A stretch of DNA of 64,000 bases from Roseobacter sp. MH60115. GTDB lineage: Bacteria; Pseudomonadota; Alphaproteobacteria; Rhodobacterales; Rhodobacteraceae. Below are positions 39,516 to 58,131 of this stretch, piece by piece (position 1 is the first letter of the stretch; every line of letters starts with the position of its first letter). The stretch covers positions 1 through 64,000 of the forward strand of contig NZ_JADOBQ010000008.1 in NCBI RefSeq assembly GCF_015644665.1, given 5' to 3'. The notes under the pieces are model-generated. The model did no database searches, had not been told where the DNA came from, and saw nothing but the letters and a program-made list of their open reading frames with translations. Both the position numbers and the translations under genes were made by a program.

Positions 39516-41780
39516 ATGGCTTACACGCCGACGCAAATTCTGTCTCGCACGGCATCGGTCCTGCAAGACTTTACCGTGGATGTCGCCAATACCGCCGCAA
39601 GCTACCAAAAGACCTTTGATCGTACATTCACGCTGAACGGCAAGGAACAGGTCCGGAAAGGCCCGACACGCGCCAATGTGTACGAGCTTCATGACGAAAT
39701 CGCCCGCCTTCTGGACGACCTGCCGTTATCCCCTCCCTCGGGCAGTGGCCAGATTTCCGTCGCGGCCGCGCGCACGGCCCTGGCAACTGACTTCTTCGAC
39801 ACGCTGGAAAAAGATCGCAGCAGCCTGCAACTGAGCCGGGCCATCGACGCCTATGGGTTGTTTCATCTGTTGCGCAGCCCCGCCAACAAGCTTGCGCGCA
39901 AGACGCAAATTCAGGACATCAAGAGCGCGCTGTCCATTCTGCAACAACTCTACAACCGGACGGTGCGGTTCGCGCCCAAGCTCCAGAAACTGCTCTACGA
40001 TCCATCGGTTCAGTTGTCCGTAGCCTTTGACAAGGCGCCAGCTGTGGCCCGGCTGGCTTTTTTGCAAGAGCTCTTTGCGGCCATGCCGGTTCTGGATACG
40101 CAGCAGCCTGCGGCAAACCGGTTCAAGGAGGTGCAGGCGCTCAGCTTTGGCGGAACCAACCGGATCAACGACCGGATTAGCCAGGACGCGGCCAATTCCC
40201 TGTATGTCGCGGATTGCGTGTTCAATGTCGGTCGCCTCGCCCAGCTGGCCGACGATCTGCCCGTCAAGCTGCACAATGATTCGACGATCGGCGACACGTA
40301 TATCTTGACGGGGACCCCGCCCTCCGCGGATGCCGCGCGGATGCTTTGGGGCGACGACCCCTTTGGGCAGACGAAAAAGGCGACGGATCTCATTGCTTTG
40401 GGCCAGCGCACCGTCAAGCTCTATGTATCGGTCATCAGCATCAGCCACCAGATTGCTGCAACAGCGCTCGATGCGAATGACGGCTCGGGCAACAAGGTCA
40501 GCGGCAGCGACGCGGTCAAACGCTGTTTCGCAAAGCTGATGGGTGTGGCACCGACCACGCTGACCAAAACCGCCAAAGAGGTAGAGGCGGATGCGATCAA
40601 GGCCGTCAAGACCGGCAGCACGAAATGGACCAAGGCGCTGGCCAATGTCGAAACCTTTGTCGATGGGGCAGGGAAACTGCAAAAGATCGGTGGGCGCGGG
40701 CTTCAGATGCTCGGCTTCTACGGGGCTGTCAAAGACTACAACACCAAGGGCGATCTGACTTCTGCCACCAAGTTGATCTGTACGATGGTGCAGGACGGCG
40801 CCTCACTACGCGCGGAGTTGATCGCCTTCCGGTTGGCTGATGACGTCCTGCTGGATGACGCCGCCAAGGCCGCGGCGACGGTGGGCATGCGGCGGCTGGC
40901 GATGCTTGCCTCCATTCCTCTGATGATCCTCGATGCGCATGCGGCGGTCCAAGGCGTCGCTGATGCGACGCGGCTGAACGACATGTCGGTGGCCTTTGGT
41001 CACTTTCTGGCAGGCTCCTCCAGCCTGATCTCGGGCAGCATCGGTGTGTACATGTATTTCGCGGGTGTCGCGGTGGCGACGGGGCCGCTTGGCATCATTC
41101 TGGTCATCGCCATGGCGGCGGGTATTGCGGGCGCATTGCTGATCTGGCTGACCAAGGACCCACGCCTGCAGTCAGCACTCGACAGTTGCTTTTTCGGGAA
41201 GAACCCGAGCAACGGCACGAAGTTGATGGATCCGGACCACAAGTTCGGAGGCACCTCGAAAACCTCAAACAGCGGCAAGAAGACCACGTGGACCTACACC
41301 AACGCGGACCTGGCCGAGCAGACCTTTAGCATCCGGTCGTTCATGTACGGCCCCGGTTTTCAGGTCAGCACGAAGCAGCCCAGCGGGTCGGCTGCCGGCA
41401 GCAACAGGCGTTGGCTTTATCAGGGGATCAAGACAAGCGACCCGAAATTCAAGCGCTACAAGGATTGGTCCTACAGCGTGCGCATTGTGGATGACAACTC
41501 TGCCGCTGATCAACCGGTTCCCAATTGGAAAGACAAAGGCAATGCCGCCGACTTCTTTGCCAAAGGAGCACAGAAGGTGATGCTGCTGCCGACCAAGGAA
41601 ACCGTGGCACAGGTGATTGCGATGATCGGTCAGGGCTCGTTTTCCTCCAGCACCACGAACTTCCCTGTTCTCAGCCATGGCATGGCGGGTGACATTCTCG
41701 AGTATCGGGTCTTTGGCCCGAAGCCGGAAAATGGCGGTCGGCGCAAAATGGTGTTCCGTGACAGGGCGAAATACAGATGA
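39516..41780 (+). CDS. Large protein with glycine-rich membrane hairpin, unknown operon gene 1
   Basis: A 754-residue protein without a signal peptide. Residues 1-480 are mainly helical (for example TQILSRTASVLQDFTVDVANTAAS, SSLQLSRAIDAYGLFHLLRS, IQDIKSALSILQQLYNRTVRF). Residues ~500-548 form a hydrophobic hairpin: SSLISGSIGVYMYFAGVAVA, then GPLGIILVIAMAAGIAGALLIWL, ended by TKDPRLQSALDSCFFG. The rest is beta-rich with many Lys/Ser. The hairpin followed by a short amphipathic segment with Cys-Phe-Phe-Gly recalls membrane-inserting modules of some bacterial toxins and secretion-effector families, but this is pattern recognition only. It overlaps gene 2 by ATGA. The ribosome site (GGGTATTTT) is weak. 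Not recognised as a characterised family. Confidence 0.85.
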   Translation: MAYTPTQILSRTASVLQDFTVDVANTAASYQKTFDRTFTLNGKEQVRKGPTRANVYELHDEIARLLDDLPLSPPSGSGQISVAAARTALATDFFDTLEKDRSSLQLSRAIDAYGLFHLLRSPANKLARKTQIQDIKSALSILQQLYNRTVRFAPKLQKLLYDPSVQLSVAFDKAPAVARLAFLQELFAAMPVLDTQQPAANRFKEVQALSFGGTNRINDRISQDAANSLYVADCVFNVGRLAQLADDLPVKLHNDSTIGDTYILTGTPPSADAARMLWGDDPFGQTKKATDLIALGQRTVKLYVSVISISHQIAATALDANDGSGNKVSGSDAVKRCFAKLMGVAPTTLTKTAKEVEADAIKAVKTGSTKWTKALANVETFVDGAGKLQKIGGRGLQMLGFYGAVKDYNTKGDLTSATKLICTMVQDGASLRAELIAFRLADDVLLDDAAKAAATVGMRRLAMLASIPLMILDAHAAVQGVADATRLNDMSVAFGHFLAGSSSLISGSIGVYMYFAGVAVATGPLGIILVIAMAAGIAGALLIWLTKDPRLQSALDSCFFGKNPSNGTKLMDPDHKFGGTSKTSNSGKKTTWTYTNADLAEQTFSIRSFMYGPGFQVSTKQPSGSAAGSNRRWLYQGIKTSDPKFKRYKDWSYSVRIVDDNSAADQPVPNWKDKGNAADFFAKGAQKVMLLPTKETVAQVIAMIGQGSFSSSTTNFPVLSHGMAGDILEYRVFGPKPENGGRRKMVFRDRAKYR

Positions 41781-44700
41781 GCGTGCGTCTTGAAGATGTT
41801 CTGCTGCGGGAACTTGGGCGCCTGATGGAGCCGCTGGCCGGTCTTGCGCGCCCCGGCCTGACGCTGGCAGCGCGGGACTACGACCAACCGGCGGGCACCT
41901 TCAAGGATACCACGTCGGGCTTTCATGTGCGGCTTGAGGATTTCCTGACCGCCGCCGGTTTACAGGTGCCGCCCTTTGCGGCCTCGGATGGTCCCGTGGT
42001 TCAGCTGGCGACGGATCTGCAATCGGTGCTGACAAACGTCGAGAAGGTTGCGCAGGGCGATGCGACGGCGCTCGCCTCTATCGTGGATGATGTGAAATCA
42101 GCGGTCGCTGCGATCAAATCACTTGCAGCGGCGCATCCGGATTTGCCCGGGCCCGATGAGTTGGCCGCGCGCATCACCGAACATCTGACGGCTGTGTACG
42201 TCATGGCCTATCATCCGCCGGTGGCGGCGGTCACCGCCATGCTGGGTGTGCTGGATGAAACCGCAGTGCGGGATCGCGCACCAGGCCAGTTTGACTTTGC
42301 AGCCATTGGTCCGGCCCTGGCCGATCCAAGCGGGGCCTTGGCCGCCGAGATGGGCTTTGGCACCGACGCGCTTGCGGCAAACCGGTTCCTGGACAGGCTG
42401 GCGCTTTTGCTGGGGTCCCTGGATCTGCAGGTTGATGTCAAGGACGGCCAGTCGCGCGGGCTGCCGGACGGCACCCCGGCAGATCCGGGCGCCGATCACG
42501 TTCTGAGCTATGAGCTGTTCCGCCATGTCGACCCCTCTCTGTTGGCGTTTCTGTCCCTGCGCGGGGTGCCCGCAGATGGTACGAAAAAGCCGGGGTTGAA
42601 AGGCTTCATCGATGCAATCGGCGCAGGCAAGATCGAGTTCCCACTCCCCGAAGATAGCGCGGCCTTGGCAACTTTTGAGGCCAGTGCCGAAACGGATGAT
42701 CTGGCCGCCGTTACCATCCGACCGAGCGGCCTGCAGGTCGAGGCGGGTGTGCCGGATATCCGGCTTGGCGCGAAGCTCAAACGCGACATGGTGCTTGCGG
42801 ATCTGACGCTCGGACCGGTGGGGCTGCGTGCCGAAACCCCGCAGACGGCTCTTTCGGTTGTCTATGCCGATAGCAAGGCCGAGCTGCGGGTCGAGCTGCA
42901 TATAGACAAGGCGGAACTGTCGCTGGGTGTGACCGACGCGGACGGATTTCTGGCCAGCCTGTTGCCCGCCGGGGCATTGTCGGCAGCCTTCTCGCCGACT
43001 ATTGGCTGGTCGAGCGCTGCGGGGTTCTTTGCCGAAGCCGGAGGCGCCGGTCTGTCCGCGCGCATCCCCACGGAAATCGCCTTTGGCAAAGCCTTTGCGC
43101 TGCAGGCCATCGAGGTCAGTGTCGGATTGAATGACGTACCGAACCAGTTGTCGCTGGAGGTATCCGCCGGGGCCGAAGCGCAGATTGATATCGGGCCCGT
43201 CTCCGCAACGGTCGAGGGGATCGGGGTCATCATCGATGTCGATCTTGACCCCGCGGGCGATGGCCCTGTGGCGCGCAGGCCCCGGTTCAAACCGCCCACC
43301 GGCCTCGGGCTGGGCATTGACGCGGGTCCCGTGCGTGGCGGCGGCTATCTGTCCTTTGACCATCCGCGCGGGCGCTACGCCGGGGCACTGGCGCTGGAGG
43401 TGCCGCCGGTTGCCCTGACAGCCTTTGGCGTTCTGGACACCAAAATGCCGGACGGGCGTGATGGATGGTCGCTGCTGTTGTTCCTCGCTGCGCGGTTCCC
43501 GGCGATCCCCCTTGGCTTTGGCTTCAACCTTCTCGGCGCGGGCGGCATTGTCGGGCTGAACCGCGATGTGGATGTGGACGCGCTTTTTGCTGCTGTGCGG
43601 GCGGGAAAGGCGGGGCAGTTGCTTGCCCCTGAGGACCCGGTGCGCGACGCGTCCAGCCTCATCCGCGATGCAGAGGCGATTTTCCCGGTCACGCGCGGCC
43701 AGCATGTCCTGGGACCGACGGTGGCCCTGGGCTGGGGCACGCCGCAGCAGTTGCTGACGCTCGATCTTGCCCTCGCGCTCACCTTGCCGGAGCCGCTGCG
43801 GATCATTCTGATCGGCACGCTCAAGGCCAACATCCCAAATGAGATCCTGCCGATTGTAAAGCTGAACGTCGATGTCGCGGGCGTTCTGGATGTGAGCGGG
43901 CAGCGTTTTGACCTGGAGGGGCGGATCTACGACAGCCGCATTCAGGGCATTCCGATTGAGGGCGGGTTTGCGGTGCGCAGCGCCTGGGGCCCGGCACCCG
44001 AACTGGCGTTCAGCGTTGGCGGTCTGCATCCCGGTTTCGAGCCGCCACCCGGTTTTCCGACGCTGGCACGCCTCGGCGTCGATCTGAGCAAGGGCAGCCG
44101 TTTCAAGCTGCTGATCAACGGTTACTTCGCAATCACATCCAACAGCCTGCAATTTGGCGCGGCGCTCGATCTTCAGGCGCGCGCGGCGGGGTTTCAAATC
44201 CTCGCCGAACTGGGGTTCGACGTGCTGATCCTGCTGGACCCCTTCCAGATGGAGGCGGCGATCCGTGCAAGTGCCGCCATCAAGCGGGGCGGCGATACGC
44301 TCTGCGCCGTGCGCCTGTCGGGCACGCTGAGTGGTCCCGGTCCCTGGCGCGCGCGCGGGTCCGCAACCATCGAAATCCTGTTCTTCGATGTGGATGTGGG
44401 GTTCGACAGCAGCTTTGGCGAGGCGGCCCAGCCCCGGATCGACGCGAAATCGGCTTGGGACGTTCTGCGAGGTCGCCTTTCGGATGCCGCCAGTTGGGGC
44501 AGTGGCACACAGGCAGATGCAGGCGATTTGATCCTCGGCGAGACCACGGGGCTGGTGTTGCCCGACGCACCGCTTGAATTGCGCCAGGACGCGGTGCCGC
44601 TGGACCTGCGTCTTGAGCACTTCGGGGGCCATCCGATCTCCGGCGCGCGGGAATTCCGTCTCGCGCATCTGCGCGATCTGGCAAATCGTGAGATGATCAA

Positions 44701-45121
44701 CGCAGGGACTGTGGCCGCGCGCTTTGCGCCGGGCAGCTTTCTGAAATACAGCGATAACGAGAAACTGACCGCACCGGCCTTCGAGGACCTGACGGCGGGC
44801 GCACGCTTTGTCATCGGCGTGGCAGCAGGCGATGCCGTTGAAGTCCGTCAGCCACGCGACCTGATCCTGATCGACGCGCCAGAGCCGTCGCCGGGTTTCA
44901 CCCCTGCACGCCAGGCGCGCCACCTAGAGGGTGCGGCACCGGATACGGCAGACCTCGGCCCGGCGGCCAGGGTGACACCAGCGCGCGGCATCCGCATCAA
45001 ATCCGAGGCCTGGTGTGTGCCGGACGCGGAGCTGTCGCGCGCACAGGGCACGTCCGGCCCCTATGCGGAATTTCGGGGGCGTGGACAGCCCGCAGCCCGT
45101 CTCAGCGAGGTCGGCCAATGA
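41777..45121 (+). CDS. DUF6603-like giant beta-rich protein, unknown operon gene 2
   Basis: A 1114-residue protein starting inside the stop of gene 1. Residues 1-200 are helical; residues ~250-900 are repeated amphipathic beta strands of about ten residues (LGPVGLRAETPQTALSVVYA, AELRVELHIDKAELSLGVTD, LALEVPPVALTAFGVLDT). The block FGFNLLGAGGIVGLNRDVDVDAL with GHPISGAREF-like later blocks, and the sequence ELAFSVGGLHPGFEPPPGFPTLARLGVDLS, match my memory of DUF6603, a family of large uncharacterised proteins. No signal peptide or membrane helix. The strand pattern suggests a lipid-binding or shell-like beta structure. Overlaps gene 3 by ATGA. Confidence 0.82.
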   Translation: MSVRLEDVLLRELGRLMEPLAGLARPGLTLAARDYDQPAGTFKDTTSGFHVRLEDFLTAAGLQVPPFAASDGPVVQLATDLQSVLTNVEKVAQGDATALASIVDDVKSAVAAIKSLAAAHPDLPGPDELAARITEHLTAVYVMAYHPPVAAVTAMLGVLDETAVRDRAPGQFDFAAIGPALADPSGALAAEMGFGTDALAANRFLDRLALLLGSLDLQVDVKDGQSRGLPDGTPADPGADHVLSYELFRHVDPSLLAFLSLRGVPADGTKKPGLKGFIDAIGAGKIEFPLPEDSAALATFEASAETDDLAAVTIRPSGLQVEAGVPDIRLGAKLKRDMVLADLTLGPVGLRAETPQTALSVVYADSKAELRVELHIDKAELSLGVTDADGFLASLLPAGALSAAFSPTIGWSSAAGFFAEAGGAGLSARIPTEIAFGKAFALQAIEVSVGLNDVPNQLSLEVSAGAEAQIDIGPVSATVEGIGVIIDVDLDPAGDGPVARRPRFKPPTGLGLGIDAGPVRGGGYLSFDHPRGRYAGALALEVPPVALTAFGVLDTKMPDGRDGWSLLLFLAARFPAIPLGFGFNLLGAGGIVGLNRDVDVDALFAAVRAGKAGQLLAPEDPVRDASSLIRDAEAIFPVTRGQHVLGPTVALGWGTPQQLLTLDLALALTLPEPLRIILIGTLKANIPNEILPIVKLNVDVAGVLDVSGQRFDLEGRIYDSRIQGIPIEGGFAVRSAWGPAPELAFSVGGLHPGFEPPPGFPTLARLGVDLSKGSRFKLLINGYFAITSNSLQFGAALDLQARAAGFQILAELGFDVLILLDPFQMEAAIRASAAIKRGGDTLCAVRLSGTLSGPGPWRARGSATIEILFFDVDVGFDSSFGEAAQPRIDAKSAWDVLRGRLSDAASWGSGTQADAGDLILGETTGLVLPDAPLELRQDAVPLDLRLEHFGGHPISGAREFRLAHLRDLANREMINAGTVAARFAPGSFLKYSDNEKLTAPAFEDLTAGARFVIGVAAGDAVEVRQPRDLILIDAPEPSPGFTPARQARHLEGAAPDTADLGPAARVTPARGIRIKSEAWCVPDAELSRAQGTSGPYAEFRGRGQPAARLSEVGQ

Positions 45122-47727
45122 CGGAAGGACGTTTTTACAGCTGGATGCGCCGCGGGCTACGTGCCCTGGAGGGTGCGCGCGACACTGTCGAGCTGGACGT
45201 GACAATCGCCGGTCAGAACCCGGTGCGTGCGACGCTCCCGCTCGCCGGGCCGGGGCAGGTGGAAGGCCTGCGCGAGACTGCGGTTGTCGGTGTGGACCCG
45301 GCACCGGGCAGCGGTGATCACCGCGCCGGGGCACTGCCGTTCGTGACCTTTCGCGACCCTGCGCTGCCCTGGAGCATGTCACCCCATGCTCCCGATCCTC
45401 AGGGGCGGCTGACCCCCTGGCTGGCGCTGATCTGCGTGCCGCAGGACCGCGCGACGATCCATCGTGGGCAGATGCTGGACATTCTCGATGCGGATGATCT
45501 GCAGACAGAGGATGGCGCGTCCTTGCTGCCCGACCCTGCGGATGCCTACCTCAGCGCGCATGTGCATGATCCGGACGGCGCTGCGGGCGATGCGGATCCG
45601 GGCGCGCGGGCCGTTTCGCGCCTTGTCTGCCTGCAGCAGCTGGTATCGGGGACTGCCTATTTTGCCTGTGTGGTGCCGCTGTTCGAGGCGGGCCGCCGTG
45701 CGGGGCTGGAGATCGATCCCGGAGATGCCGACGGTTTTGCCTGGGATCTGGCCAACCCGCGCCTGCGCACGCCGGTCTATCATCATTGGCGCTTTTCCTG
45801 TGGGCCGGGGCGCGGGGTCGAGGATCTGCTGCGCGATCTGTCGGCGCAGGCCCTCGACAACTCCGCAGCAGCCGAGGTCGCGGTGGCCGACCGTTTCAGT
45901 GACCCCGTGCCGTCCCTCTCCGGCACCAAACTGCCGCTGCGCACACTGTTCTCGCCCGTGGATCCCCCATCGCCAACGCCCCTGCGCGCGCTGACGCCTG
46001 CGTTGAAAGCGACGGACGGGCAGGGCGACGTTCAACTCCCGCTGCCCTCCTACGGTGCGGCGCAGGCCAAGGCCGAAGATGCTAGCGATGATGCCGCGCC
46101 GCGCTGGTTCAGAGAAGTGAACCGTGATCCGAGCTTGCGCCGTCTTGCGGGTGTCGGGGCGGCGCTGGTGCGCACGCAGCAGGATGCGATGGTCGGTTTC
46201 GTGCGCCAAAGCGCTGGTGCGATTGACGAAGCAAACGCGATCCTCGGACGCGCCCATGCGGCCAAGGCGATGAATCGTGGGTTGACGGCAGCTCTGGCGA
46301 AGGCGGATGCCCCCACCTTGACCCTGTTCGCAATGCCTGCGGCGGACCGGATGCGGGTCGGCAGCGGCGCGGCGCGCAAACCGCTGGGGGCGGCGCTGGC
46401 AGGCAGGGACCTTGCCGTCTTGTCGGCACCGGATCTGACCCGGCGGGCCTCGCGTCGCGGTGTCGATGCTGCGGCGCTGGCGCAGGCCTTCGAGCGGGTC
46501 GGTACGGAAATGGCAGATGGTCACGATGTGGCCGGCGCCAGCATCGCGCCGGAACTCGCCACTGGCATGATTGACGCAGGGCAGGCCAGCAGCATTCCCG
46601 CCGCAGCACCCGACGCGCGCAGGTTTGCCGATCTCTTGGCCGATCTTGCCGACAACGGGTTGCGCGATCTCGACACAAAAGCAACGGAGACGCCGCCGGA
46701 GGTGACCGCCTGGGCGGACGGGCTCCGCGACAACAGCGCGCAGCCGTCGCGCAGAGACGAGCCCGGTTCGGTGGATGATCCGCTCGGCCTGGCGCAGGAC
46801 ATTGCCTCGGCCCTTGATCCCGACCGCTCCGTACCGCCCCGGATTGCGGCGCGGCTGGACGGCGCGGGGATCGATCCGGAGGCCCCGCTGCCCAGTCGCG
46901 TTCTGACAGAGCCTGTCTGGCCGGAACCGGTGATTGACCAAGTGCTGAAGATGGCGCCCGATGTCCTGGCGCCCGCCCTGTCGCAGATACGCGAGGATTC
47001 GATTGTCGGCATGCGCTATGACGCCGCCGCGATGGAAGCGATCATGGTGGGGGCCAATCACGAGTTGATGCGTGAGCTGCGCTGGCGCGGTCTGCCCTGC
47101 GAGGTTGCGGTCTCGCCCGTGCGGCGCGCCTTCCCGGCCCCGACCCGGGGCGGCACGCTCGACCCGGACCTCCTGCCCCTGCGCAACTGGGGCGACACAC
47201 CTTTGGGATCACACGCCGCTCAGGGGGCGGATGCGCAAGGGGCGGGCGTGGATTTCGTGGCGATCATGCGCTCTTCGCTGATCCGCCGGTTCCCGGATGT
47301 GACGGTGACCTTGAACCGCGCGGTCGAGGACGGGCAGGGCAGAGCACTGGACGCGCGCCGTCAGCCTGTGGCCCCCGCAATCACCGGCACCCTGGGGGAG
47401 GACCTGATCTATTTCGGCTTCCCCCCCGTTGGCGATCTGATGGCGGATGCGGGCTGGTTTTTGACATTTACCCAACCGCGGGTCGGCCTGTCGTTCGGGA
47501 TCAACGCCCCCTTGGACACACCGCCACGCGGGGTGGGTGAGCTTTCATCCTGGAATGCGCTGAGTTGGTCGGACCTCCAGGGCGGCACCATCCGTCGCGA
47601 CGCGCTGGATGCCACCCCTCTGGAAGGGTTGCGCTGGGGGTCTGGGGGGGCGGCCATGGCCGGTATTCTGCTGGAAAGGCCGGTGACCGTCGGGCTTCAC
47701 CTCAGCGATCTTCTGACAGTGGGTTAA
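45118..47727 (+). CDS. Large uncharacterised protein, unknown operon gene 3
   Basis: Started at ATG 45118, which overlaps the stop of gene 2, it is 869 residues; an upstream in-frame start would have to lie deep inside gene 2 and is rejected. It begins FYSWMRRGLRALEGARDTVELDVTIAG and has PFVTFRDPALPWSMSPHAP then RLTPWLALICVPQD. The C-terminal part holds a likely conserved block: SSLIRRFPDVTVTLNRAVED, LIYFGFPPVGDLM, DAGWFLTFTQPRVGLSFGIN and WSDLQGGTIRRDALDATPLEGLRWG. I recall such motifs in large hypothetical proteins of other bacteria but know no function. No signal peptide, no membrane segment and no catalytic motif are recognisable. Confidence 0.82.
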   Translation: MTEGRFYSWMRRGLRALEGARDTVELDVTIAGQNPVRATLPLAGPGQVEGLRETAVVGVDPAPGSGDHRAGALPFVTFRDPALPWSMSPHAPDPQGRLTPWLALICVPQDRATIHRGQMLDILDADDLQTEDGASLLPDPADAYLSAHVHDPDGAAGDADPGARAVSRLVCLQQLVSGTAYFACVVPLFEAGRRAGLEIDPGDADGFAWDLANPRLRTPVYHHWRFSCGPGRGVEDLLRDLSAQALDNSAAAEVAVADRFSDPVPSLSGTKLPLRTLFSPVDPPSPTPLRALTPALKATDGQGDVQLPLPSYGAAQAKAEDASDDAAPRWFREVNRDPSLRRLAGVGAALVRTQQDAMVGFVRQSAGAIDEANAILGRAHAAKAMNRGLTAALAKADAPTLTLFAMPAADRMRVGSGAARKPLGAALAGRDLAVLSAPDLTRRASRRGVDAAALAQAFERVGTEMADGHDVAGASIAPELATGMIDAGQASSIPAAAPDARRFADLLADLADNGLRDLDTKATETPPEVTAWADGLRDNSAQPSRRDEPGSVDDPLGLAQDIASALDPDRSVPPRIAARLDGAGIDPEAPLPSRVLTEPVWPEPVIDQVLKMAPDVLAPALSQIREDSIVGMRYDAAAMEAIMVGANHELMRELRWRGLPCEVAVSPVRRAFPAPTRGGTLDPDLLPLRNWGDTPLGSHAAQGADAQGAGVDFVAIMRSSLIRRFPDVTVTLNRAVEDGQGRALDARRQPVAPAITGTLGEDLIYFGFPPVGDLMADAGWFLTFTQPRVGLSFGINAPLDTPPRGVGELSSWNALSWSDLQGGTIRRDALDATPLEGLRWGSGGAAMAGILLERPVTVGLHLSDLLTVG

Positions 47728-47743
47728 GGGAGGGGCCGTCGCT

Positions 47744-50700
47744 ATGCCATTCGAGTTTCAGATCGAAGATGTCTTCTCGATCACCGGGCGTGGCACCGTC
47801 GTCGTCGGCCGGGTTCTTTCCGGCGAAATATCGGTCAACGATATAGCCCGCGTGCCTTTGGTGGACGGTACGCTGCGCGCGACACGTATCACCGGGATCG
47901 AAGCCTTCCGCCGGGTGCAGGACAACGTCAAGGCGGGGGAGCAGGCCGGGCTGTTACTGGAGCGTATTGAAAAAGCGCTGATCCAGGAGGATGGCGTGCT
48001 CCGCTCAGAGGATGTGACGGAGAAAACCCAGTCCCTTGAGACCGTAGAACTCTCCCATTCCGGTTCCGATGCGCCGTTGATGTTATTGCCGCTCAGGATC
48101 GAGACCGCAGCGAATGAAAAAGGCCTGCGCATTCGGGTCTTTCCCGATGCGATGCACGGCGACACTCGGCGTCCGGGTTTCTCTCCCGATGAGTTGGCCG
48201 CGGGCGACGAGTGGCGCGACGCTCGGGGGGCTGCGGCGCGCGCGGATCTGCGCCGCGAGATGGAGCAGCGCTTTGGTGTGCCGCGCGCCTATGCCATCCG
48301 GAAGGCTGCAGAGGCCGGTGCCCTGACGCCGGGTAGTCCAGATCAGCCGCGTCCTGTGGCACGTGATCTGCCGGAACGGCTGGTTTTTCATGTACGACAG
48401 CCCGATGGCGCGTCCTTCACCGTCGCCGGGGAGCGGATCCCACGGGATCTGCCCATGGGACCCGGACCGGGCGATACGGGGCTGATGGACGATCCGCGTG
48501 ATCCGCTGTTCTGGCTTGCCGATTTTGATCGGGCGCAGGCGGTCGGTATGGCCGCCGAGATTGCATTTGACGATGCGCTGGCGGCGGACGCGGTTGCAGA
48601 TGTGACCGTTTTCGGGACCGGTGACGGTGACCTTGCCGGTCTGTTGGAGCGACTTGCGGAAGGGGCGGGGCTGTCGGCGCTGCATCCGGGGCAACTGACC
48701 AAAGGTCCGTCCGCTGCGCAAGGTGGCCCGTTTCAAGAGATCAAGACGTCAGGCCCTGACGCGTTGGCCGCGCTGGCAGGGACCGACGTGCCCGACACAT
48801 TGGGCGCGGCCCGAACGCCGGACAGGATCACCCAGGCCGTGATCACAATTCTGTGGGAAGCCGCCTTGCGCCCGGGATTTGTTGCCGATCAGGTCTTTGG
48901 CGAGGACGCGGGCCTGGATGACAGCGTCCAAAGCCTCGCTGCGATCCGGCAGAGCCTTTCGGAGCTGCTACCGCCGCCGGGTGAATTGCCGATCCTGCAG
49001 GTCGGGCGCACCCCGGTTGGGCTGATGCGTTTGTCTGCTGCCCCGGCAGAGGAGGCACCGGAATGGCTGGGCCGGATCACCGCTGCCATCCGCGCGGGGC
49101 TGAAGCCGCTGGCCGCTGCCGCCGCGCAGGCCCGTCCCGACCCTGACGGCGGGGCGGACAGCCTTGTCGAAACCCTCGCGCGTATGCCTCTTGGTCATGC
49201 GTGGCGCAGCCGTCTCAGGTGGCACGGACCCACCCTGACGCCGGTTATCCTGGGCGCGTTGCAGGCAAATCAAACCGGGGTTCAGAACAGCCTCTTGGAC
49301 GCCGCGAAAACCCTTAAAAGTGCACAGACCAAAGCCGAAACCTTTGGCTTTACCGCCAAGGACGTGCCCGCGCGTTTTACGGAATACCTCGGCTCCCCCT
49401 TCACCAGCATTGTGTGCGGTCCTCTTGTCGCGGAAGGCGCGCAGGAGATGCCCGACACACCATGGGCCGACGCGCCGCTGGCCCGGCTTTTGGAAGACCC
49501 CGATCATGTTGCGGAGCTTCTACCGCGCAACGCCACCCGCCGTGCGGAAGAGGGGCCCGAACCATTGCTGCGCATCCTTTGTGAAGATGGCTTGCGCAGC
49601 GTTTTGGCCGACCTCTCCGCATTGGTGCAGACGGACGGAATTGAAAAGGCGGTCGCGTTGCGGACCAGAGGCCTGAAAGAACCGCCACAACAGAGTGGCG
49701 ATACCCCGTCACACCGCCTGATGGTTGATCTTGTCACGCGTCTGGGGCGCCCGGTGCGCGACATCCCCAGTGCGCGGGAGCTCCAAGGGCGCGCCCGTCT
49801 GAGCGACCTGGTGCAGCTGATCTCGGCCATCAACGTGCTGCAGGAGGCACCGCAGGCCGCGCTGCATCTGGTGCTGGCAAATCTGATTGACGCCTTCTCC
49901 ACCCGCGCCGATATCTGGATCGAAGCGGAGGCGCGGCTGCGTCTGACCCGGGACCGGCGCAGGCAGGTGAGCATCGGCGCATGGGGCCATGTGGAGGCCG
50001 CCCCCCTGCGCGCCGCTGAGGCGCCGCCTGCAACCTATCACGCAGCACCTTCCCAACGGCTCGCCCGCCTGTCAGGGCTGTTGACGCGGGCAGAGGCCGG
50101 TCTTGCGGCGAGTGGTCTGGAGGGCGTGATCGACGCGGCGTTCAGTGCGGGCAGGGTGCGTGCGGCGCGTGACCTGCTGGAGGAATTGGCGGCTGCAGGC
50201 AGTTTCGAGACCGCCGTGAGCCGTGCCATCGTCGCCCATCTGCGCCACGCGGGTTTCAGCGATGCAGTACCGCACGTCGCCAAAGCCCACCCGGATCCCG
50301 AAGGAAGCACCCGGTTTGACGGGCTTCACCTTCTGGAACACGGCGCGGGCAGCATCGTGGGCTTGGAAAGACCCGCACGCAACGCCTTGGACGCAGCCAT
50401 CACGGCAACACGGGAAGCGGCGGATGTTCTCGGCGCTCTGATCACGGCGGAGGGTGGATTGGCGCTCAGCGAGGGCCGCGCTGAGCGTGCTGCAGGCCTG
50501 TTGAACGCGCGCGGTGCCGGTGCCGTGCCGCCAGCGGAACCGGAAGCCATCGCGCCGCGCCGCGCCGGGCAGGCCCTGCACTTTGGTGTCTCGGTGACCG
50601 GGCAGGCATCTGCCGCGCCCGACCTGCATCCCGCCCTATCCATGGCACCGGCGCTGACGGATATCGCGGCGCGTCTGGTAGGCCCGATGCAGGGTGACAT

Positions 50701-52027
50701 CCGCTTGCTTGCGCTGAACGGCCCACGTCCGGCCCGCACAATCGCGCTTTCCAGCCTGCCCGGCGGTGCATTGGCATTGGTCCGATTGGCCGACGCGGAT
50801 CGCGCCACTCTTGCGGCCATCGGAGAGGTTTTTGCGCTGCAGGCCGGGCTTGACCCCGAAGAGTGGCGTGCAGACGCCGATCAGGCGGCCGAGGATGCGA
50901 TCTGGGCCGCGTCCCGCGTGTCTCGGCTCTTGTCACAAGGCCGCAGTCTCATGGCGGAGGACTTTGACGATGCAGGTGCTGGCAGCCCGGTGGCGCCACA
51001 GCCGGATGCATCGGCGCTGCAAATCCGTATCACCGCAGCCCGCGAAGGGCTGATCACGCTCAAGGCGCGTGTCGATGCCCTTTTGCCGCGCTTGCCGGGT
51101 CCAAACCCGATACCGGATGTCCTCCAGCCGGTACCCGATGTGCAGCGTCCGGGACCCGTACCAGACCCGATTGTGCCGACCGGACCCGTCAGCGATCCAA
51201 ATGTGACGTCGGCGTTGCTGGTCGATCTGATGGTGGCTGGCCTCGTCCGTTCGACCCTCGGGCAGGGGCGCTTTGCCCTTCTTGCGGAGGCGTTGGCGTC
51301 GATTGATGCCCGCTTGCAGGCTGCCGAAGCCGCGCCAACCCCGCAGGCCACGTTGACGGCATTGCTCCACGATATGCCCGCCCTGGTTCCGCTGCGCGTC
51401 CCTGCGCAAAGCGCCGTGTGGCAAAAGCCCTCCCGGCCCGATGCCGGGCCGACGCCAGCGACGCTCGGGCACTGGCTGGAAACCTCCGGGCGCGTCAGAC
51501 CCCGATTGGAGCCGCTCACAGATCTTGTTCTGGGTGCGCAGGATGGGCTGTGGCAGGTGCAATGGCCCGGCCCCGTGCAGGACGGGCAGTCCGACTGGAT
51601 CGGCACGGCCCGCATCAGCGATGACTACCACGCCCATGGCTCCGTGGTCTTCCAGGGCCCGCGTCCGCAGGCGGGCGATGTGATCGAAGGCCTTATGCTG
51701 GATCAGTGGCAGGAAGTGGTGCCGGATCGCACCGCGACCGCGGCGCTGGCGGTCTCGGCATCGGCACCTCCGGCCCGCGCGCCGCAAGTGGCATTGGTTG
51801 CGCCCGCCCCGCCAGATGGTTGGGATGCGTCCTCCGTGCTGGCAACCATCGACCTTGCCGTCGATCTGGCTAAGGTCCGCAGCCTCGGCCTGACCGATCT
51901 GCCCGCGCAATCCGAGGCGGGGCCGCTCTATGGTGACCTTGGCGCTCTCCTGCCGGTGTTGGCAACCGCCAGCGACACCGGGATGTGGCGCGCATTGTGT
52001 GATCCGCAAGAGGAGACGCGACTATGA
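47744..52027 (+). CDS. Giant protein with N-terminal EF-Tu domain-2 barrel, unknown operon gene 4
   Basis: A 1427-residue protein starting at ATG 47744 with the strong ribosome site GGGAGGGG. Residues ~4-90 match domain 2 of elongation factor Tu: IEDVFSITGRGTVVVGRVLSGEISVND, TGIEAFRRVQDNVKAGEQAGLLLERIEK. The GTP-binding domain is absent. Residues ~105 onward contain PLMLLPLRIETAANEKGLRIRVFPDAMHGD and DPRDPLFWLADFDRAQAVGM, then long helical stretches; a proline-rich linker lies at ~1118-1146; the C-terminal part contains DVIEGLMLDQWQEVVPDRTATAALAVSASAPPARAPQVALVAP and SVLATIDLAVDLAKVRSLGL. Overlaps gene 5 by ATGA (52024). I recall similar C-terminal blocks in hypothetical proteins, function unknown. 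Confidence 0.85.
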   Translation: MPFEFQIEDVFSITGRGTVVVGRVLSGEISVNDIARVPLVDGTLRATRITGIEAFRRVQDNVKAGEQAGLLLERIEKALIQEDGVLRSEDVTEKTQSLETVELSHSGSDAPLMLLPLRIETAANEKGLRIRVFPDAMHGDTRRPGFSPDELAAGDEWRDARGAAARADLRREMEQRFGVPRAYAIRKAAEAGALTPGSPDQPRPVARDLPERLVFHVRQPDGASFTVAGERIPRDLPMGPGPGDTGLMDDPRDPLFWLADFDRAQAVGMAAEIAFDDALAADAVADVTVFGTGDGDLAGLLERLAEGAGLSALHPGQLTKGPSAAQGGPFQEIKTSGPDALAALAGTDVPDTLGAARTPDRITQAVITILWEAALRPGFVADQVFGEDAGLDDSVQSLAAIRQSLSELLPPPGELPILQVGRTPVGLMRLSAAPAEEAPEWLGRITAAIRAGLKPLAAAAAQARPDPDGGADSLVETLARMPLGHAWRSRLRWHGPTLTPVILGALQANQTGVQNSLLDAAKTLKSAQTKAETFGFTAKDVPARFTEYLGSPFTSIVCGPLVAEGAQEMPDTPWADAPLARLLEDPDHVAELLPRNATRRAEEGPEPLLRILCEDGLRSVLADLSALVQTDGIEKAVALRTRGLKEPPQQSGDTPSHRLMVDLVTRLGRPVRDIPSARELQGRARLSDLVQLISAINVLQEAPQAALHLVLANLIDAFSTRADIWIEAEARLRLTRDRRRQVSIGAWGHVEAAPLRAAEAPPATYHAAPSQRLARLSGLLTRAEAGLAASGLEGVIDAAFSAGRVRAARDLLEELAAAGSFETAVSRAIVAHLRHAGFSDAVPHVAKAHPDPEGSTRFDGLHLLEHGAGSIVGLERPARNALDAAITATREAADVLGALITAEGGLALSEGRAERAAGLLNARGAGAVPPAEPEAIAPRRAGQALHFGVSVTGQASAAPDLHPALSMAPALTDIAARLVGPMQGDIRLLALNGPRPARTIALSSLPGGALALVRLADADRATLAAIGEVFALQAGLDPEEWRADADQAAEDAIWAASRVSRLLSQGRSLMAEDFDDAGAGSPVAPQPDASALQIRITAAREGLITLKARVDALLPRLPGPNPIPDVLQPVPDVQRPGPVPDPIVPTGPVSDPNVTSALLVDLMVAGLVRSTLGQGRFALLAEALASIDARLQAAEAAPTPQATLTALLHDMPALVPLRVPAQSAVWQKPSRPDAGPTPATLGHWLETSGRVRPRLEPLTDLVLGAQDGLWQVQWPGPVQDGQSDWIGTARISDDYHAHGSVVFQGPRPQAGDVIEGLMLDQWQEVVPDRTATAALAVSASAPPARAPQVALVAPAPPDGWDASSVLATIDLAVDLAKVRSLGLTDLPAQSEAGPLYGDLGALLPVLATASDTGMWRALCDPQEETRL

Positions 52028-53559
52028 CACTCCGTCACAGGATCGAACCGGACTGCCGGTCCGTGCAGGACATCGACCAGGGCGCGCTGGTGCCCCTGGC
52101 CGATCCCGCCTGGATGCTCTCGCGTCAATGGTGGACGGGGGAATTGGCGGGATCTGATGGTGGCACGCCGGTACGGACACGGGTGACATTTTCAACCGAA
52201 GGACTGGCTCCCGCCGATGTCGATCCGCAGTCCGTCGTGCCATCTGCCTATCTGGCTGTGCAGGACGCGCCGCTGAGCATGCGGGAGGCGGCAGCGCTGG
52301 GGTTAAGCATCCTGGCCCGAATGGACGATGAAATTTCCCGCATGGCGGCGTTTATCGAGCAAGGTGGAGACCGGTCGGGTAACCTGCGCGAAGCACTTGA
52401 TCTTTTGTCGCGCAAACGATCGGAGATGCCCGAGGCCTTTCCTCTCGACGCGAACACACCGGTCCTGCGCAGGATGCCACCGCATCAGCGAGTGGACGGT
52501 GCGGCGGTGCGCAAAGCAGTTCTGAATGAGGCCCCGGAGGCCCGCAGGTTGCTGAGCGACGGCGTCCAACTCTGGGTACGCGGACAGGGGGAAGGCGGCG
52601 CGGCCTTTTCTGCAGAAACCGCCCGCCACAGCGCGCAGATCAACACTGCCACCGATGTGATCGAGATCAAGGAGGCCCGGGGCCCAAGGCTGCACTGGTC
52701 CGAGGTCCAAGGATACGACGTCTGGGAAGAGGCGGCGACTGAAACCCGCGCCAGCGCGCCGGTGCGCCTGTCCTATGCGGGTGACGCACCTGCCGCGTGG
52801 TGGGGGCTGGAAGAGACAGGTGTCGCTTACACCTCTGCACCAGCGGGACCGTCCGATCTAGGGCAGTTGCTGATTGCCACAGCCTTTGCCCATCCCGGCG
52901 CGCTTGGGTGGCTTGTGACCGTGGATACATCGGCCAATTCGCTCTTACATGTCGGCGAGGTTGCGCTTTTTGATGGCTTTGGTCGGGAAACGACGGTGAC
53001 GCGCGCCGACAAAGGCGCTGCTGTGGCTTGGAAAGACGACAGTGCTGCCCAGTGGATGCCGCTGCTCGCCGATGCGCCGCTCTTGGAAGGGGCGCCGACC
53101 GATCTCATTGCCTTTGGCCTTGATGAGACTGACAATATTGTCTGGATGGAAGAGCGCATCGTGCCGGATGCCGATGGCCGCGGCACACATCCAAAGCCCG
53201 CGCGCCCGGATCGCAGCACATCTGATCCGGTGTTTGCGCTGCGTGTTCCGTCGCCCTCTACCTGGCATCCATATCTTTTGCAGGCGGATGGCACGCTCTT
53301 GCGCCAATCGCTGCCCCGTCATGCCCAGGGGGGCACCCTCGATGCCGTGGCGCCCGGCGCATCGCTTGCGCCCGAAAGAATGGCGCTGATCCCGCAGCAA
53401 ATCCCGCCCAAGGGGTTCGCGCTTCAAAGGCGGTGGGTGCTGGGCCGTGCGCCGGACGGATCGCGTCAGGTATGGCGCGTGAACGGCACGGCGGATGCAA
53501 AACTCAGCGGCAGCGCAGGGCTTGCGCATGACCTCGTGCTCTATCCCCAGGCGCAGTAG
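52024..53559 (+). CDS. Uncharacterised protein with WMLSRQWWTGE motif, unknown operon gene 5
   Basis: A 511-residue protein starting inside the stop of gene 4. Near the N-terminus is IDQGALVPLADPAWMLSRQWWTGELAGSDGGTPV, which I associate with a family of uncharacterised proteins (general form W-L-x-R-Q-W-x-x-G-E), then helical segments (AAALGLSILARMDDEISRMAAFIEQGG). The second half is beta-rich with SEVQGYDVWEEAATETRASAPVRLSYAGDAPAAWWGLEETGV. No signal peptide, membrane helix or enzyme motif. It ends the five-gene operon, 27 bases before a perfect 7-bp inverted repeat. Confidence 0.82.
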   Translation: MTLRHRIEPDCRSVQDIDQGALVPLADPAWMLSRQWWTGELAGSDGGTPVRTRVTFSTEGLAPADVDPQSVVPSAYLAVQDAPLSMREAAALGLSILARMDDEISRMAAFIEQGGDRSGNLREALDLLSRKRSEMPEAFPLDANTPVLRRMPPHQRVDGAAVRKAVLNEAPEARRLLSDGVQLWVRGQGEGGAAFSAETARHSAQINTATDVIEIKEARGPRLHWSEVQGYDVWEEAATETRASAPVRLSYAGDAPAAWWGLEETGVAYTSAPAGPSDLGQLLIATAFAHPGALGWLVTVDTSANSLLHVGEVALFDGFGRETTVTRADKGAAVAWKDDSAAQWMPLLADAPLLEGAPTDLIAFGLDETDNIVWMEERIVPDADGRGTHPKPARPDRSTSDPVFALRVPSPSTWHPYLLQADGTLLRQSLPRHAQGGTLDAVAPGASLAPERMALIPQQIPPKGFALQRRWVLGRAPDGSRQVWRVNGTADAKLSGSAGLAHDLVLYPQAQ

Positions 53560-53586
53560 GCTGCTTGGTTGACATCTGATGGCAGC

Positions 53587-53606
53587 GTCTATGGGTTCAC
53601 ATAGAC
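53587..53606. repeat. Perfect 7-bp inverted repeat after the unknown operon
   Basis: GTCTATG (53587-53593) and CATAGAC (53600-53606) around GGTTCA. It lies 27 bases after the stop of gene 5; no T-run follows. Possible terminator or operator. The gap 53560-54008 holds no other gene; a longer in-frame reading from 53862 lacks a ribosome site and signal sequence. Confidence 0.5.
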
Positions 53607-54008
53607 TGGATTTGACAGGCGAGGCTCTCAGGCTCATAGCCACCGCTGAGGCGTGGTCGATGTGGTGCCAATGACGGATTCCTGATCGCCAGGACCATCC
53701 GCGAAGTCCTTATGCTGGCCGAAATCTCTCCTGACACGCAAGGCATTTGCACGCTCCCTCAGCATCGACTTTATACGCCAGCGACATTTTTTTCAACAAA
53801 AACAGGTGCGAGTAACTGTTCGCCACATCCTTAAAGCTCCCGTTGTGCCTCACAAAAACAGGTGTCTGATAGCTTCGAACTGATGACATCGCCAATCATG
53901 AAGCGGTTTTTACACATCGTTGTGAATGACAACCTGTCCCAAAAGCTACTGAAAACATGTGGCAGCAACCAAATCTTAGTACCTGCGGCGTACCGAGATA
54001 GGACTGCA

Positions 54009-54773
54009 ATGAAAAGGTGCACCGTGCTGAAAAGCTTCGCCGCCATATTGACTGCCGTTTTCACAACTGCCGCTCAGGCAAATACCACCGTGGTCCTGGC
54101 TCTCGCGGACAACTATGCGCCGCTGATGACCCCGGATGGTGGAATTGCGGGTGATATACTCGACGAAGTCAATATGCGTCTCGGCGATGAATTCGAGATT
54201 GAAATTCAATCTGTGCCGTGGTCCCGCGCTGTGACGCTCGTCGAAAGCGGTCGTGCACATGGCTTGGTTGGTACATACTATCGTCCCAATATTCGACCCT
54301 GGATCGACCCATACTCGCGCCCGCTTCTACAAGACGCAGTAAGCATTTTTTGCCGCACTGGCATTGCTGACCCGACGTGGAGCTACCCGCGGGATTACGC
54401 CGGCCTGACATTCGGCTTCCTTGTCGGGTCCTATGCGGCAGGTGACGAATTCCATGCGATGAGGGACGCTGGTGAGATCAGCGTTGATGACAGCACAACC
54501 ATAACGGCGAACCTTCTCAAACTGAAAGCAGGGAGAATTGATTGCTTTGTGGAGGGACGGCTACCCATCCAGGTTGAACTCGCTCAAATCGGAGGAACAG
54601 ACGCAATAGAAATGGTCGGTGATGTCAAAGTCGAGGATTTCTATGTGGGCTTTCTGGATGATTGGGCACAGGGGGCCGATGCCGCGAGTTTTATCGCAGC
54701 TTTCGATGAAACGATTGAGCAAATGCAAGCCGACGGAACGATAGACCTGATCATAGAAAACGGATTGGAATAG
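54009..54773 (+). CDS. Solitary periplasmic binding protein (type II, family 3)
   Basis: Started at ATG 54009, because this gives a signal peptide (LKSFAAILTAVFTTAAQA), it is 254 residues. The fold is amino-acid-binding-like: TTVVLALADNYAPLMTPDGGIAGDILDEVNMRLG, EIEIQSVPWSRAVTLVESGRAHGLVGTYY, GLTFGFLVGSYAAG. No permease or ATPase gene is near, so it may be a stand-alone sensor component or act with a distant transporter. The neighbouring convergent gene encodes a membrane GGDEF-EAL protein. Base composition is clearly less GC-rich than in the earlier operons. Confidence 0.82.
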   Translation: MKRCTVLKSFAAILTAVFTTAAQANTTVVLALADNYAPLMTPDGGIAGDILDEVNMRLGDEFEIEIQSVPWSRAVTLVESGRAHGLVGTYYRPNIRPWIDPYSRPLLQDAVSIFCRTGIADPTWSYPRDYAGLTFGFLVGSYAAGDEFHAMRDAGEISVDDSTTITANLLKLKAGRIDCFVEGRLPIQVELAQIGGTDAIEMVGDVKVEDFYVGFLDDWAQGADAASFIAAFDETIEQMQADGTIDLIIENGLE

Positions 54774-54901
54774 GAGCGTCCGCGCTCTGCTGTCCCAAAA
54801 ACATCCGGTCAAAGGGTGGTTTCCACATCAATTTCGACCCGGAACTCTTTGCTCTCCCATCAAAAGACATAAGATAGCAGTGGAAAAACCTGCGGCAGCG
54901 G

Positions 54902-57103: not shown

Positions 57104-57121
57104 GCCATACTCCAAGATCAA

Positions 57122-57462
57122 TCAACCACTGCGTTAGCAGATCTGCCTTAATACCGGACTAATTGTCTGACCTCGGCGCCAATGATCGCCACTATCTGAG
57201 CGGTACGTTTTGAGTGTTAGTAAGTGCTTGGCTTCTGTATGCCGGGAAGTCATGCGCCCTTCACAATACCTGCGATGACCTGTGCTAGGGAGTGCGAAGG
57301 GCCTACGGACTCCGATCAACTGACCGCATGCCGCTGAAGTCTGGGTTGCCGACCTTGGCTGGACCGGTGGACCCGGGTCGTTTACTCCACTGCAGCGCGG
57401 GTTTGAGCTCCTTCACCTGATGCAGCATTGCGACCAATGGTTTGCCTCGATACATCAAAAGT
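57122..57462. other. Non-coding gap between GGDEF-EAL and HD genes
   Basis: About 340 bases without a supported gene. It contains the start region of the divergent minus-strand GGDEF-EAL gene. A stretch around 57395-57425 (GGGTTTGAGC, TCCTT, CTGATG) resembles one at 59718-59745; both could be decayed repeats. Confidence 0.3.
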
Positions 57463-58131
57463 ATGAATTTTGCTGAGCATTTCACCCCTTGCGACGACAT
57501 TGCCATGGAACTGGCCCCATACGCACTTGGCACGGTTGATGATGGGTCACATGACGTGTCCCACCTTCTCCGGGTGTGGCGCAACGTTCAGGTCATCTCC
57601 GCACAAGAAGGTGGTGATCATAGAATTCTGGCCGCTGCAACACTGCTACATGATTGCGTTGACATACCGAAGGACTCGCCACTCAGGTCTTCGTCCTCTC
57701 GCATGGCAGCGGAAAAAGCGTTGGGAATACTCTCGGGTCTGGGATGGAAGAAAGACACAGCGGGCATGGTCGCACATGCTATTGAAGCACATAGCTTTTC
57801 AGCTGGTGTCGAGCCAAAGACCTTGGAAGCTCAGATTCTGCAAGATGCGGATCGCCTGGATGCAATCGGGTACATCGGAATTGCCCGATGTTTCTACGTT
57901 TCAGGGCGCCTTGGAAGGGCAATCTACGATCCTCACGACCCTGCAGCGTCAAACCGAGACCTTGATGATCTGACTTTCGCTATCGACCATTTTCAAACAA
58001 AACTCCTGCGGCTGTCTGCTTCGTTCCAGACTTTGACTGGAGGCACGCTTGCGGCGAAACGGCACGAAACTGTTCAGAAATTCCTGCGTGGTCTTTTGCT
58101 GGAAGTGGCCGCCGATCAAAGCAATATCTGA
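57463..58131 (+). CDS. HD-domain phosphohydrolase
   Basis: Started at ATG 57463 it is 222 residues; the ribosome site is poor. The HD signature is complete: DDGSHDVSHLLRVWRN, AAATLLHDCVDIPKDS (His-Asp) and LEAQILQDADRLDAIG, with ERAYRD-like end replaced by LRLSASFQTLTGGTLAAKRHE. It belongs to the YedJ/YpgQ-like group of small HD proteins, which hydrolyse nucleotides or phosphate esters; the substrate is unknown. It is isolated between two long non-coding gaps. Confidence 0.88.
   Translation: MNFAEHFTPCDDIAMELAPYALGTVDDGSHDVSHLLRVWRNVQVISAQEGGDHRILAAATLLHDCVDIPKDSPLRSSSSRMAAEKALGILSGLGWKKDTAGMVAHAIEAHSFSAGVEPKTLEAQILQDADRLDAIGYIGIARCFYVSGRLGRAIYDPHDPAASNRDLDDLTFAIDHFQTKLLRLSASFQTLTGGTLAAKRHETVQKFLRGLLLEVAADQSNI

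What the first reader, a model, noticed from the sequence alone, without database searches (positions are those of the whole stretch)
47744..48020. EF-Tu domain-2 barrel fused to a giant protein with no GTPase domain
The first ~90 residues of the 1427-aa protein reproduce the EF-Tu domain-2 pattern (IEDVFSITGRGTVVVGRV ... GIEAFRRVQD ... AGEQAGLLLERI), including the Gly-Arg-Gly-Thr turn. There is no P-loop or NKxD motif in the operon. Domain 2 in translational GTPases binds tRNA ends or ribosomal sites, so as a detached module it could be a binding adaptor.
Basis: seen in the sequence. Interest (0 to 1): 0.75.

Follow-up and report, generated by a model that had tools for sequence, protein, structure and literature searches.

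The report
EF-Tu barrel grafted onto giant protein
One bacterium has fused the middle, tRNA-gripping piece of the protein-synthesis factor EF-Tu to the front of a giant protein from a widespread, uncharacterised gene cassette, although the relatives of that giant protein examined here lack the piece.

Summary
Residues 1-92 of the 1427-aa protein (47744-48019) are a true EF-Tu domain 2: PF03144 is over its cut-off (38.4 against 30.3 bits), NCBIfam EF-Tu gives E down to 6.1e-18, and solved EF-Tu structures 1.6e-15. The five genes hold no P-loop and no NKxD, only a TKGD in gene 1. The host protein is gene 4 of a four-gene cassette (DUF6603, gene 3, gene 4, gene 5) found in order in many phyla behind a variable first gene. 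It is a lineage-specific capture within this sample. The A76-adenosine pocket is kept 6 of 6 and the aminoacyl pocket 3 of 5, while the 5'-phosphate arginine is lost. Best reading: a binding adaptor for a tRNA 3' end or for a protein that docks on EF-Tu domain 2. This is inferred. The structure prediction was uninformative for the module. Novelty lies in the architecture: free-standing domain-2 proteins turned up in at least 2 of 90 actinobacterial-phylum genomes.

The parts
47744..48019 (+). EF-Tu domain-2 module, residues 1-92 of gene 4 (alignable to EF-Tu over residues 2-86)
48020..48073 (+). linker between module and body (residues 93-110), no similarity found; low-confidence in the model
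   Evidence: pLDDT below 50 at residues 81-108
48074..52027 (+). body of gene 4 (residues 111-1427), the conserved giant protein of the cassette; its first confident part (about 110-310) is modelled as a beta sandwich with inserted helices
47985..47998 (+). AGGAGG (47985-47990) and in-frame GTG (47996-47998, residue 85), a possible internal start at the end of the module
47727..47743 (+). stretch with the ribosome-binding site (AGGGAGG 47727-47733) of the full-length reading
39516..41780 (+). gene 1, in the variable first-gene slot of the cassette; weak similarity to the T6SS effector family BTH_I2691 (22.3 bits, cut-off 150), one hydrophobic segment near residue 525
41777..45121 (+). gene 2, DUF6603 protein (381.7 bits)
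45118..47727 (+). gene 3, constant cassette protein (the ORF list starts it at GTG 45013; the ATG at 45118 overlaps the stop of gene 2)
52024..53559 (+). gene 5, constant cassette protein

Best explanation
An EF-Tu-type domain 2 was captured at the N-terminus of gene 4 in this lineage, at the place where relatives carry other, often coiled-coil-looking extensions or none. It now works there as a binding adaptor. Most likely it still grips what EF-Tu domain 2 grips, either the 3' adenosine end of a (possibly aminoacylated) tRNA or a protein that docks on EF-Tu domain 2, and so ties the giant cassette complex and its variable first-gene product to the translation machinery. Shown: homology, absence of a GTPase domain, restriction to this lineage within the sample, retention of the A76 pocket, and membership of gene 4 in a conserved four-gene cassette. 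Inferred: binding, the ligand, and that gene 1 is the effector served by genes 2-5.
For: True domain 2, closest to EF-Tu rather than SelB or EF-1alpha (64.8 against 36.9 and 32.2 bits). All six A76-pocket residues identical (I231, V237, G269, E271, G287, L289 of EF-Tu = I13, V19, G51, E53, G69, L71); three of five domain-2 residues of the aminoacyl pocket kept (E226, D227, F229; T239 to V, N285 to Q). Pocket positions are kept more often than other EF-Tu-conserved positions (9 of 11 against 23 of 50; one-sided p 0.032; 0.028 in the alignment). Despite only 40-44% identity to 31 EF-Tu rows of the class that are 70-100% alike among themselves, the frame is open, has its own ribosome-binding site, and its GC3 fits the body (0.739 against 0.718), so it does not look like a fresh insertion or a decayed scrap. 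Precedent that domain 2 is a docking surface: CdiA-CT of E. coli NC101 contacts domain 2 of EF-Tu (PMC9086364, passages). Free-standing domain-2 proteins found here weakly match NCBIfam's tRNA-binding protein Pbp11.
Against: 0 of 85 other gene-4 proteins have it, so the cassette does not need it. R300, which meets the tRNA 5' phosphate in EF-Tu, is a glutamate here. The pocket statistic is weak, post hoc, rests on one sequence, and the same residues may be kept for the fold. The window module does not reach the Pbp11 model at E up to 1. One of two free-standing domains (L176) and a SelB-like domain (L178) show no significant pocket excess (7 of 11, p 0.25; 5 of 11, p 0.38); SelB binds tRNA (recalled), so identity is a poor guide to binding. 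EF-Tu residues H67 and K90, outside domain 2 by their numbers, also serve the aminoacyl pocket and the 5' phosphate (PMC4329189, passages), so domain 2 alone may bind weakly (inference). Overall G+C of the module is lower than that of the body (0.605 against 0.673).
Confidence: 0.4

Rival explanations
1. Structural cap: a stable small barrel that happened to replace the tolerant N-terminal extension of gene 4 and has no ligand of its own.
For: N-terminal extensions of gene 4 differ in length and sequence; of 78 scanned loci with the N-terminus, 2 have under 25 open residues before the conserved part, 13 have 25-84 and 63 have 85 or more (open frame, not proven protein). The module is unique to the window in this sample; 29 of 61 EF-Tu-conserved columns have changed.
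Against: Pocket positions are kept more often than other conserved positions, though weakly so.
Confidence: 0.3
2. EF-Tu mimic for toxins: the module is a decoy or loading dock for a protein that uses EF-Tu domain 2, for example an incoming contact-dependent toxin, or the cassette's own first-gene product.
For: CdiA-CT of E. coli NC101 contacts EF-Tu domain 2 (PMC9086364, passages). Gene 1 weakly resembles a T6SS effector family, and the first-gene slot of the cassette holds varied enzymes.
Against: No complex was modelled; gene 1 is far below its family cut-off; no T6SS sheath gene (PF05591) was found in the genome at E up to 0.001.
Confidence: 0.15
3. Two products: the working gene-4 protein starts at GTG residue 85, and the domain-2 part is a separate or optional N-terminal form.
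For: AGGAGG stands five bases before an in-frame GTG at residue 85, the only in-frame site of its kind in gene 4; AGGAGG with a start codon 4-9 bases behind occurs three times on the + strand and three times on the - strand of the 64-kb window. It lies at the end of the module, and relatives have the body without it.
Against: The ATG at 47744 has its own AGGGAGG, directly behind gene 3; the signal was noticed after the fact; the conservation within the module speaks for its translation.
Confidence: 0.15

Closest known systems
EF-Tu domain 2 (Pfam PF03144, GTP_EFTU_D2)
   Same: Residues 2-86 align with EF-Tu domain 2, identity up to 49% in the listed matches; A76 pocket kept
   Different: No GTPase domain, no domain 3; the positions of T239, N285, R291 and R300 are changed (numbering assigned by me); joined to an unrelated 1300-aa body
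Free-standing EF-Tu domain-2 proteins (L175:4345-4638, L176:2752-3045) and tRNA-binding protein Pbp11 (NF041207)
   Same: A detached domain 2 that keeps much of the 3'-end pocket (9 of 11 and 7 of 11 positions)
   Different: About 98 aa and not fused; the window module is less like them (37% and 33% identity) than like many EF-Tus and does not reach NF041207, which they match only weakly
DUF6603 four-gene cassette (gene 2 = PF20248)
   Same: Gene order g2-g3-g4-g5 and similarity of all four
   Different: No other examined gene 4 has domain 2; the body is divergent (best single-pass score to a gene 4 of another genome 67.9 bits over about 1300 aa)
Actinobacterial two-gene caspase conflict system with optional EF-Tu domains ('System 4', PMC7159879, section 33 read)
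   Same: An EF-Tu domain used as an exchangeable module in a multi-gene system
   Different: No caspase hit in genes 1-5; in System 4 the variable domain lies C-terminal of the caspase

Membership tests
EF-Tu domain 2 (PF03144) | score over the curated cut-off | tested here: met
   38.4 bits (module) and 32.4 bits (whole protein) against 30.3
EF-Tu domain 2 (PF03144) | beta-barrel fold | tested here: inconclusive
   AlphaFold2 gave pLDDT below 50 for residues 1-66 and 81-108, where the homologue alignment has nothing comparable; the sequence match to solved EF-Tu chains at 1.6e-15 implies the fold
translational GTPase / EF-Tu | GTPase domain with P-loop and NKxD | tested here: not met
   no G....GK[ST] in the five proteins, one TKGD in gene 1; no GTPase family in the Pfam scan at E up to 1
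translational GTPase / EF-Tu | domain 3 behind domain 2 | tested here: not met
   no EF-Tu domain-3 match at E up to 1; residues 111-1427 belong to the gene-4 family
detached tRNA-binding domain 2 (Pbp11, NF041207) | match to the NCBIfam model | tested here: not met
   not listed for P0001 or P0002 at E up to 1
detached tRNA-binding domain 2 (Pbp11, NF041207) | binds tRNA | not testable with these tools
   needs a binding experiment
gene-4 family of the DUF6603 cassette | body similarity and gene order DUF6603-g3-g4-g5 | tested here: met
   iterated search joins the window protein with all 79 scanned loci; of the 79, gene 5 in 77, gene 3 in 74, gene 2 in 69
   0 of 85 other members with an N-terminus: it is not a family feature
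System 4 caspase/EACC1 conflict system | caspase-family gene beside an EACC1 gene | tested here: not met
   no caspase family in the Pfam scan of genes 1-5 at E up to 1; EACC1 itself was not searched for

The most novel reading that the evidence does not exclude
A widespread, undescribed multi-protein system (a variable first-gene product, often an enzyme without an obvious signal peptide, plus four constant giant proteins) has in this lineage been aimed at the translation machinery by grafting on an EF-Tu domain 2, which captures tRNA 3' ends or mimics EF-Tu for a partner toxin.
Probability: 0.2. Interest if true: 0.75.

Novelty: new variant of a known kind. Interest (0 to 1): 0.45.

Why it matters
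If the adaptor reading is right, this is a natural experiment in which one part of EF-Tu, separated from GTP hydrolysis, has been re-used as a targeting device; the module is small and testable on its own. It also points to the cassette behind it, a conserved set of four large proteins in many bacterial phyla and on a haloarchaeal plasmid, for which the one name searched (DUF6603) found no paper in the library.

Tried and rejected
Chance or compositional hit: rejected, since NCBIfam and PDB matches reach 1e-15 to 1e-18. Assembly mix-up with the host's own tuf: rejected, as the module is 44% identical to the host tuf domain. Replacement of a lost EF-Tu: rejected, two tuf-sized EF-Tu frames are present.

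Module elsewhere: tblastn with the module hit 56 of 72,556 plasmid records (46 annotated as EF-Tu, 10 without annotation under the match) and 15 of 50,697 phage records (6 annotated as EF-Tu, 9 without); none was opened. The viral-contig scan found none. In 385 genomes of the class and 398 of the phylum the listed non-self matches cover only the module region and mostly lie in frames of about 400 aa, as for tuf; short and long frames were not opened and not all matches were listed. In 90 genomes of the phylum of Streptomyces locus L050 four odd-sized or weak matches were opened: two were free-standing domain 2, one looks like a piece of tuf at a contig end, one like SelB (both by their sequence, no family search). 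The other weak matches there were not opened. 18 genomes or records behind cassette loci showed nothing fused (strong matches in frames of 396-463 aa; weak ones not opened). No tree of value was obtained: the module sits on an end branch of length 10.

Rows dropped before the count of 85: L069 (no gene-4 N-terminus) and L039 (only a gene-4 fragment). 99 of 179 confirmed stretches were not kept by the scan.

Fold work on the rest: no solved relatives of genes 2-5 by profile (nothing at E below 0.08). AlphaFold2 of gene 4 residues 1-440 (mean pLDDT 65.6) and of gene 5 (65.9) gave no Foldseek match at E up to 0.001; VIA-align Z up to 5.9 to fibronectin-type sandwiches at residues 113-298 is within background. 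No T6SS sheath gene at E up to 0.001. Defence-system models gave nothing for genes 1-5.

Full report
Observation. The frame 47744-52027 encodes 1427 aa. Its first 92 residues score 38.4 bits against PF03144 (cut-off 30.3); the whole protein scores 32.4. NCBIfam EF-Tu models match residues 2-86 at E down to 6.1e-18 with 64.8 bits, against 36.9 bits for SelB and 32.2 for EF-1alpha. Among solved structures the best is an EF-Tu at 1.6e-15. The finding is real and lies at the stated coordinates. The genome has eight PF03144 places; seven lie on other contigs, and two of these are 401-aa frames of tuf size. No P-loop is present in the five genes of the operon; the only string of the kind [NT]KxD is TKGD in gene 1.

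The host protein. The body of gene 4 (residues 111-1427) had no match of its own in Pfam, NCBIfam or PADLOC, and none of note among PDB profiles. tblastn with gene 5 over plasmids found 5 records; in two Streptomyces records and a Salinigranum record the annotated neighbourhood is DUF6603, a large protein, a giant protein, a gene-5-like protein. One scan of the collection of 84,980 species genomes with an alignment of five sequences gave 179 confirmed stretches, of which the best 80 were kept as 79 loci; an iterated search groups all 79 with the window protein. In those 79 loci gene 5 is found in 77, gene 3 in 74 and gene 2 in 69, some loci being cut by contig ends. By record titles they span Actinomycetota, Pseudomonadota, Bacteroidota, Verrucomicrobiota, Nitrospirota, Acidobacteriota, Planctomycetota, Cyanobacteria, Chloroflexota and others (phylum names assigned by me from the titles). 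In the window, genes 1/2, 2/3 and 4/5 overlap by four bases and 16 bases separate genes 3 and 4 (coordinates, gene 3 taken from the ATG at 45118).

The first gene varies. In front of gene 2 stands an ORF that differs between loci. Iterated searches started from single upstream ORFs reach members in 22 loci (start L086), 8 loci (start L045) and 6 loci (start L058), not all proven to lie next to gene 2. The starting ORFs match PhoD (24.5 bits over 33 residues, under the 27-bit cut-off), peptidase M64 (34.3 bits, cut-off 26) and subtilase S8 (143.6 bits); L163 has a glycoside-hydrolase-like domain (51.9 bits) (other members were not scanned). The sequences of these groups that I printed show no obvious signal peptide by eye, with start codons unverified. 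The window's gene 1 matched no ORF of the loci and weakly resembles a T6SS effector family (22.3 bits, cut-off 150). That gene 1 is an effector served by genes 2-5 is inference from this layout only. The upstream ORF was picked automatically, and in some loci (for example L113, a TonB-dependent receptor) it is probably just a neighbour.

Is the module a family feature? No. phmmer with the module (E up to 10) over all ORFs of the 79 loci finds none. A profile built from 31 EF-Tu domains plus the window module, run with all filters off, finds there only chance hits (E 2 and worse) in short minus-strand ORFs. 78 of the 79 have the gene-4 N-terminus. Four plasmid gene-4 proteins (L040-L043) and three from the 15 other DUF6603-bearing genomes of the window's own family (16 of 394 with the window's own) also lack it. 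Two further DUF6603 loci of the class (3 of 372 genomes with the window's own) have no gene 4 in the region read. Total: 0 of 85. The scan kept 80 of 179 stretches, so about a hundred were not looked at, and closer relatives may be missing from the collections. In homologues the place of the module is taken by variable, often coiled-coil-looking stretches, or the conserved part begins almost at once (by eye).

Is it decaying or constrained? Identity to 31 EF-Tu rows of the class is 40-44%, while these are 70-100% alike among themselves; listed matches elsewhere reach 49%. Of 61 columns conserved in these EF-Tus, 32 are kept: 16 of 20 in residues 1-24, 3 of 11 in 25-48, 11 of 20 in 49-72 and 2 of 10 in 73-92. 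From passages of PMC4329189 and PMC4236685, the A76 pocket is I231, V237, G269, E271, L289 with the neighbouring G287, and the domain-2 part of the aminoacyl pocket is E226, D227, F229, T239, N285; R300 meets the 5' phosphate. The window has 6 of 6, 3 of 5 and 0 of 1 (the assignment of these numbers to alignment columns is mine, from the conserved motifs). Pocket positions are kept 9 of 11 against 23 of 50 for the rest, one-sided p 0.032. For comparison, a free-standing domain 2 (L175) keeps 9 of 11 (p 0.021), another (L176) 7 of 11 (p 0.25), and a SelB-like domain 5 of 11 (p 0.38). The test is post hoc and small. GC3 of the module fits the body (0.739 and 0.718), while its overall G+C is lower (0.605 and 0.673).

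Detached domain 2 elsewhere. A search of 90 genomes of the phylum of the Streptomyces locus L050 and four follow-up regions showed two proteins of about 98 aa made of domain 2 alone. Both pass PF03144 (57.7 and 59.3 bits) and weakly match NCBIfam's tRNA-binding protein Pbp11 (23.5 and 33.2 bits, cut-off 100). A search for a paper on Pbp11 listed only one on Listeria repressors. PMC7159879 (section 33 read) lists EF-Tu domains among the exchangeable parts of a caspase conflict system. So a detached EF-Tu domain 2 is a known kind of part; this fusion is a new place for it. Paper searches around the fusion or the cassette listed no title or abstract opening that describes either; the listed papers, other than those cited here, were not read, and the library is open-access only.

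Mechanism. I commit to a binding adaptor. Candidates for the ligand are the 3' end of tRNA (pocket kept) or a protein that docks on EF-Tu domain 2, for which CdiA-CT of E. coli NC101 is a precedent (PMC9086364, passages). The rival of a mere structural cap is nearly as good, because relatives do without the module. An AGGAGG five bases before an in-frame GTG at residue 85 would allow a form without the module; it is the only such in-frame site in gene 4, but was noticed after the fact.

Structure. AlphaFold2 on residues 1-440 with 28 homologues gave pLDDT below 50 for most of the module, where the homologues have nothing comparable, and even a helix at 54-83; I regard this as no information about the barrel. 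The part 110-310 is mostly confident and resembles a fibronectin-type sandwich only at background level. Gene 5 gave no usable match.

Noticed in passing
window 41777-53559 and loci L045-L123: A four-gene cassette (DUF6603, gene 3, gene 4, gene 5) is conserved in order across many bacterial phyla and on a haloarchaeal plasmid (L042); no relatives of genes 3-5 were found in Pfam (members scanned) or among PDB profiles.
   Followed up: partly
ORF before DUF6603, e.g. L086:158-2731, L045:793-3396, L058:3-2309, L163:1560-3695: The gene in front of the cassette varies between loci: PhoD-like group (members in 22 loci), M64 peptidase group (8), subtilase group (6), glycoside-hydrolase-like (1); no obvious signal peptide in the group members printed.
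   Followed up: partly
window 47985-47998: AGGAGG and an in-frame GTG at gene-4 residue 85, at the end of the EF-Tu module: a possible internal start.
   Followed up: partly
L175:4345-4638, L176:2752-3045: Free-standing EF-Tu domain-2 proteins of about 98 aa in two genomes of the phylum of Streptomyces locus L050, weakly matching tRNA-binding Pbp11.
   Followed up: partly
L157:1602-7007, L158:12893-18552: Two genomes of the window's family carry a 720-760-aa gene plus a DUF6603 that, among the 15 family regions, is most like the window's (366 and 358 bits), but no genes 3-5 were detected in the region read.
   Followed up: no
L150-L153, L155, L156, L159-L162, L182: DUF6603 proteins followed by a distant, mostly shorter gene-3 relative, with no gene 4 or 5 detected in the region read; in L160-L162 the DUF6603 frame is far longer (about 2780 aa within the region).
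   Followed up: no
window 53500-58000: G+C falls from about 0.65 in the cassette to about 0.53 behind it, suggesting a boundary of an acquired region.
   Followed up: no
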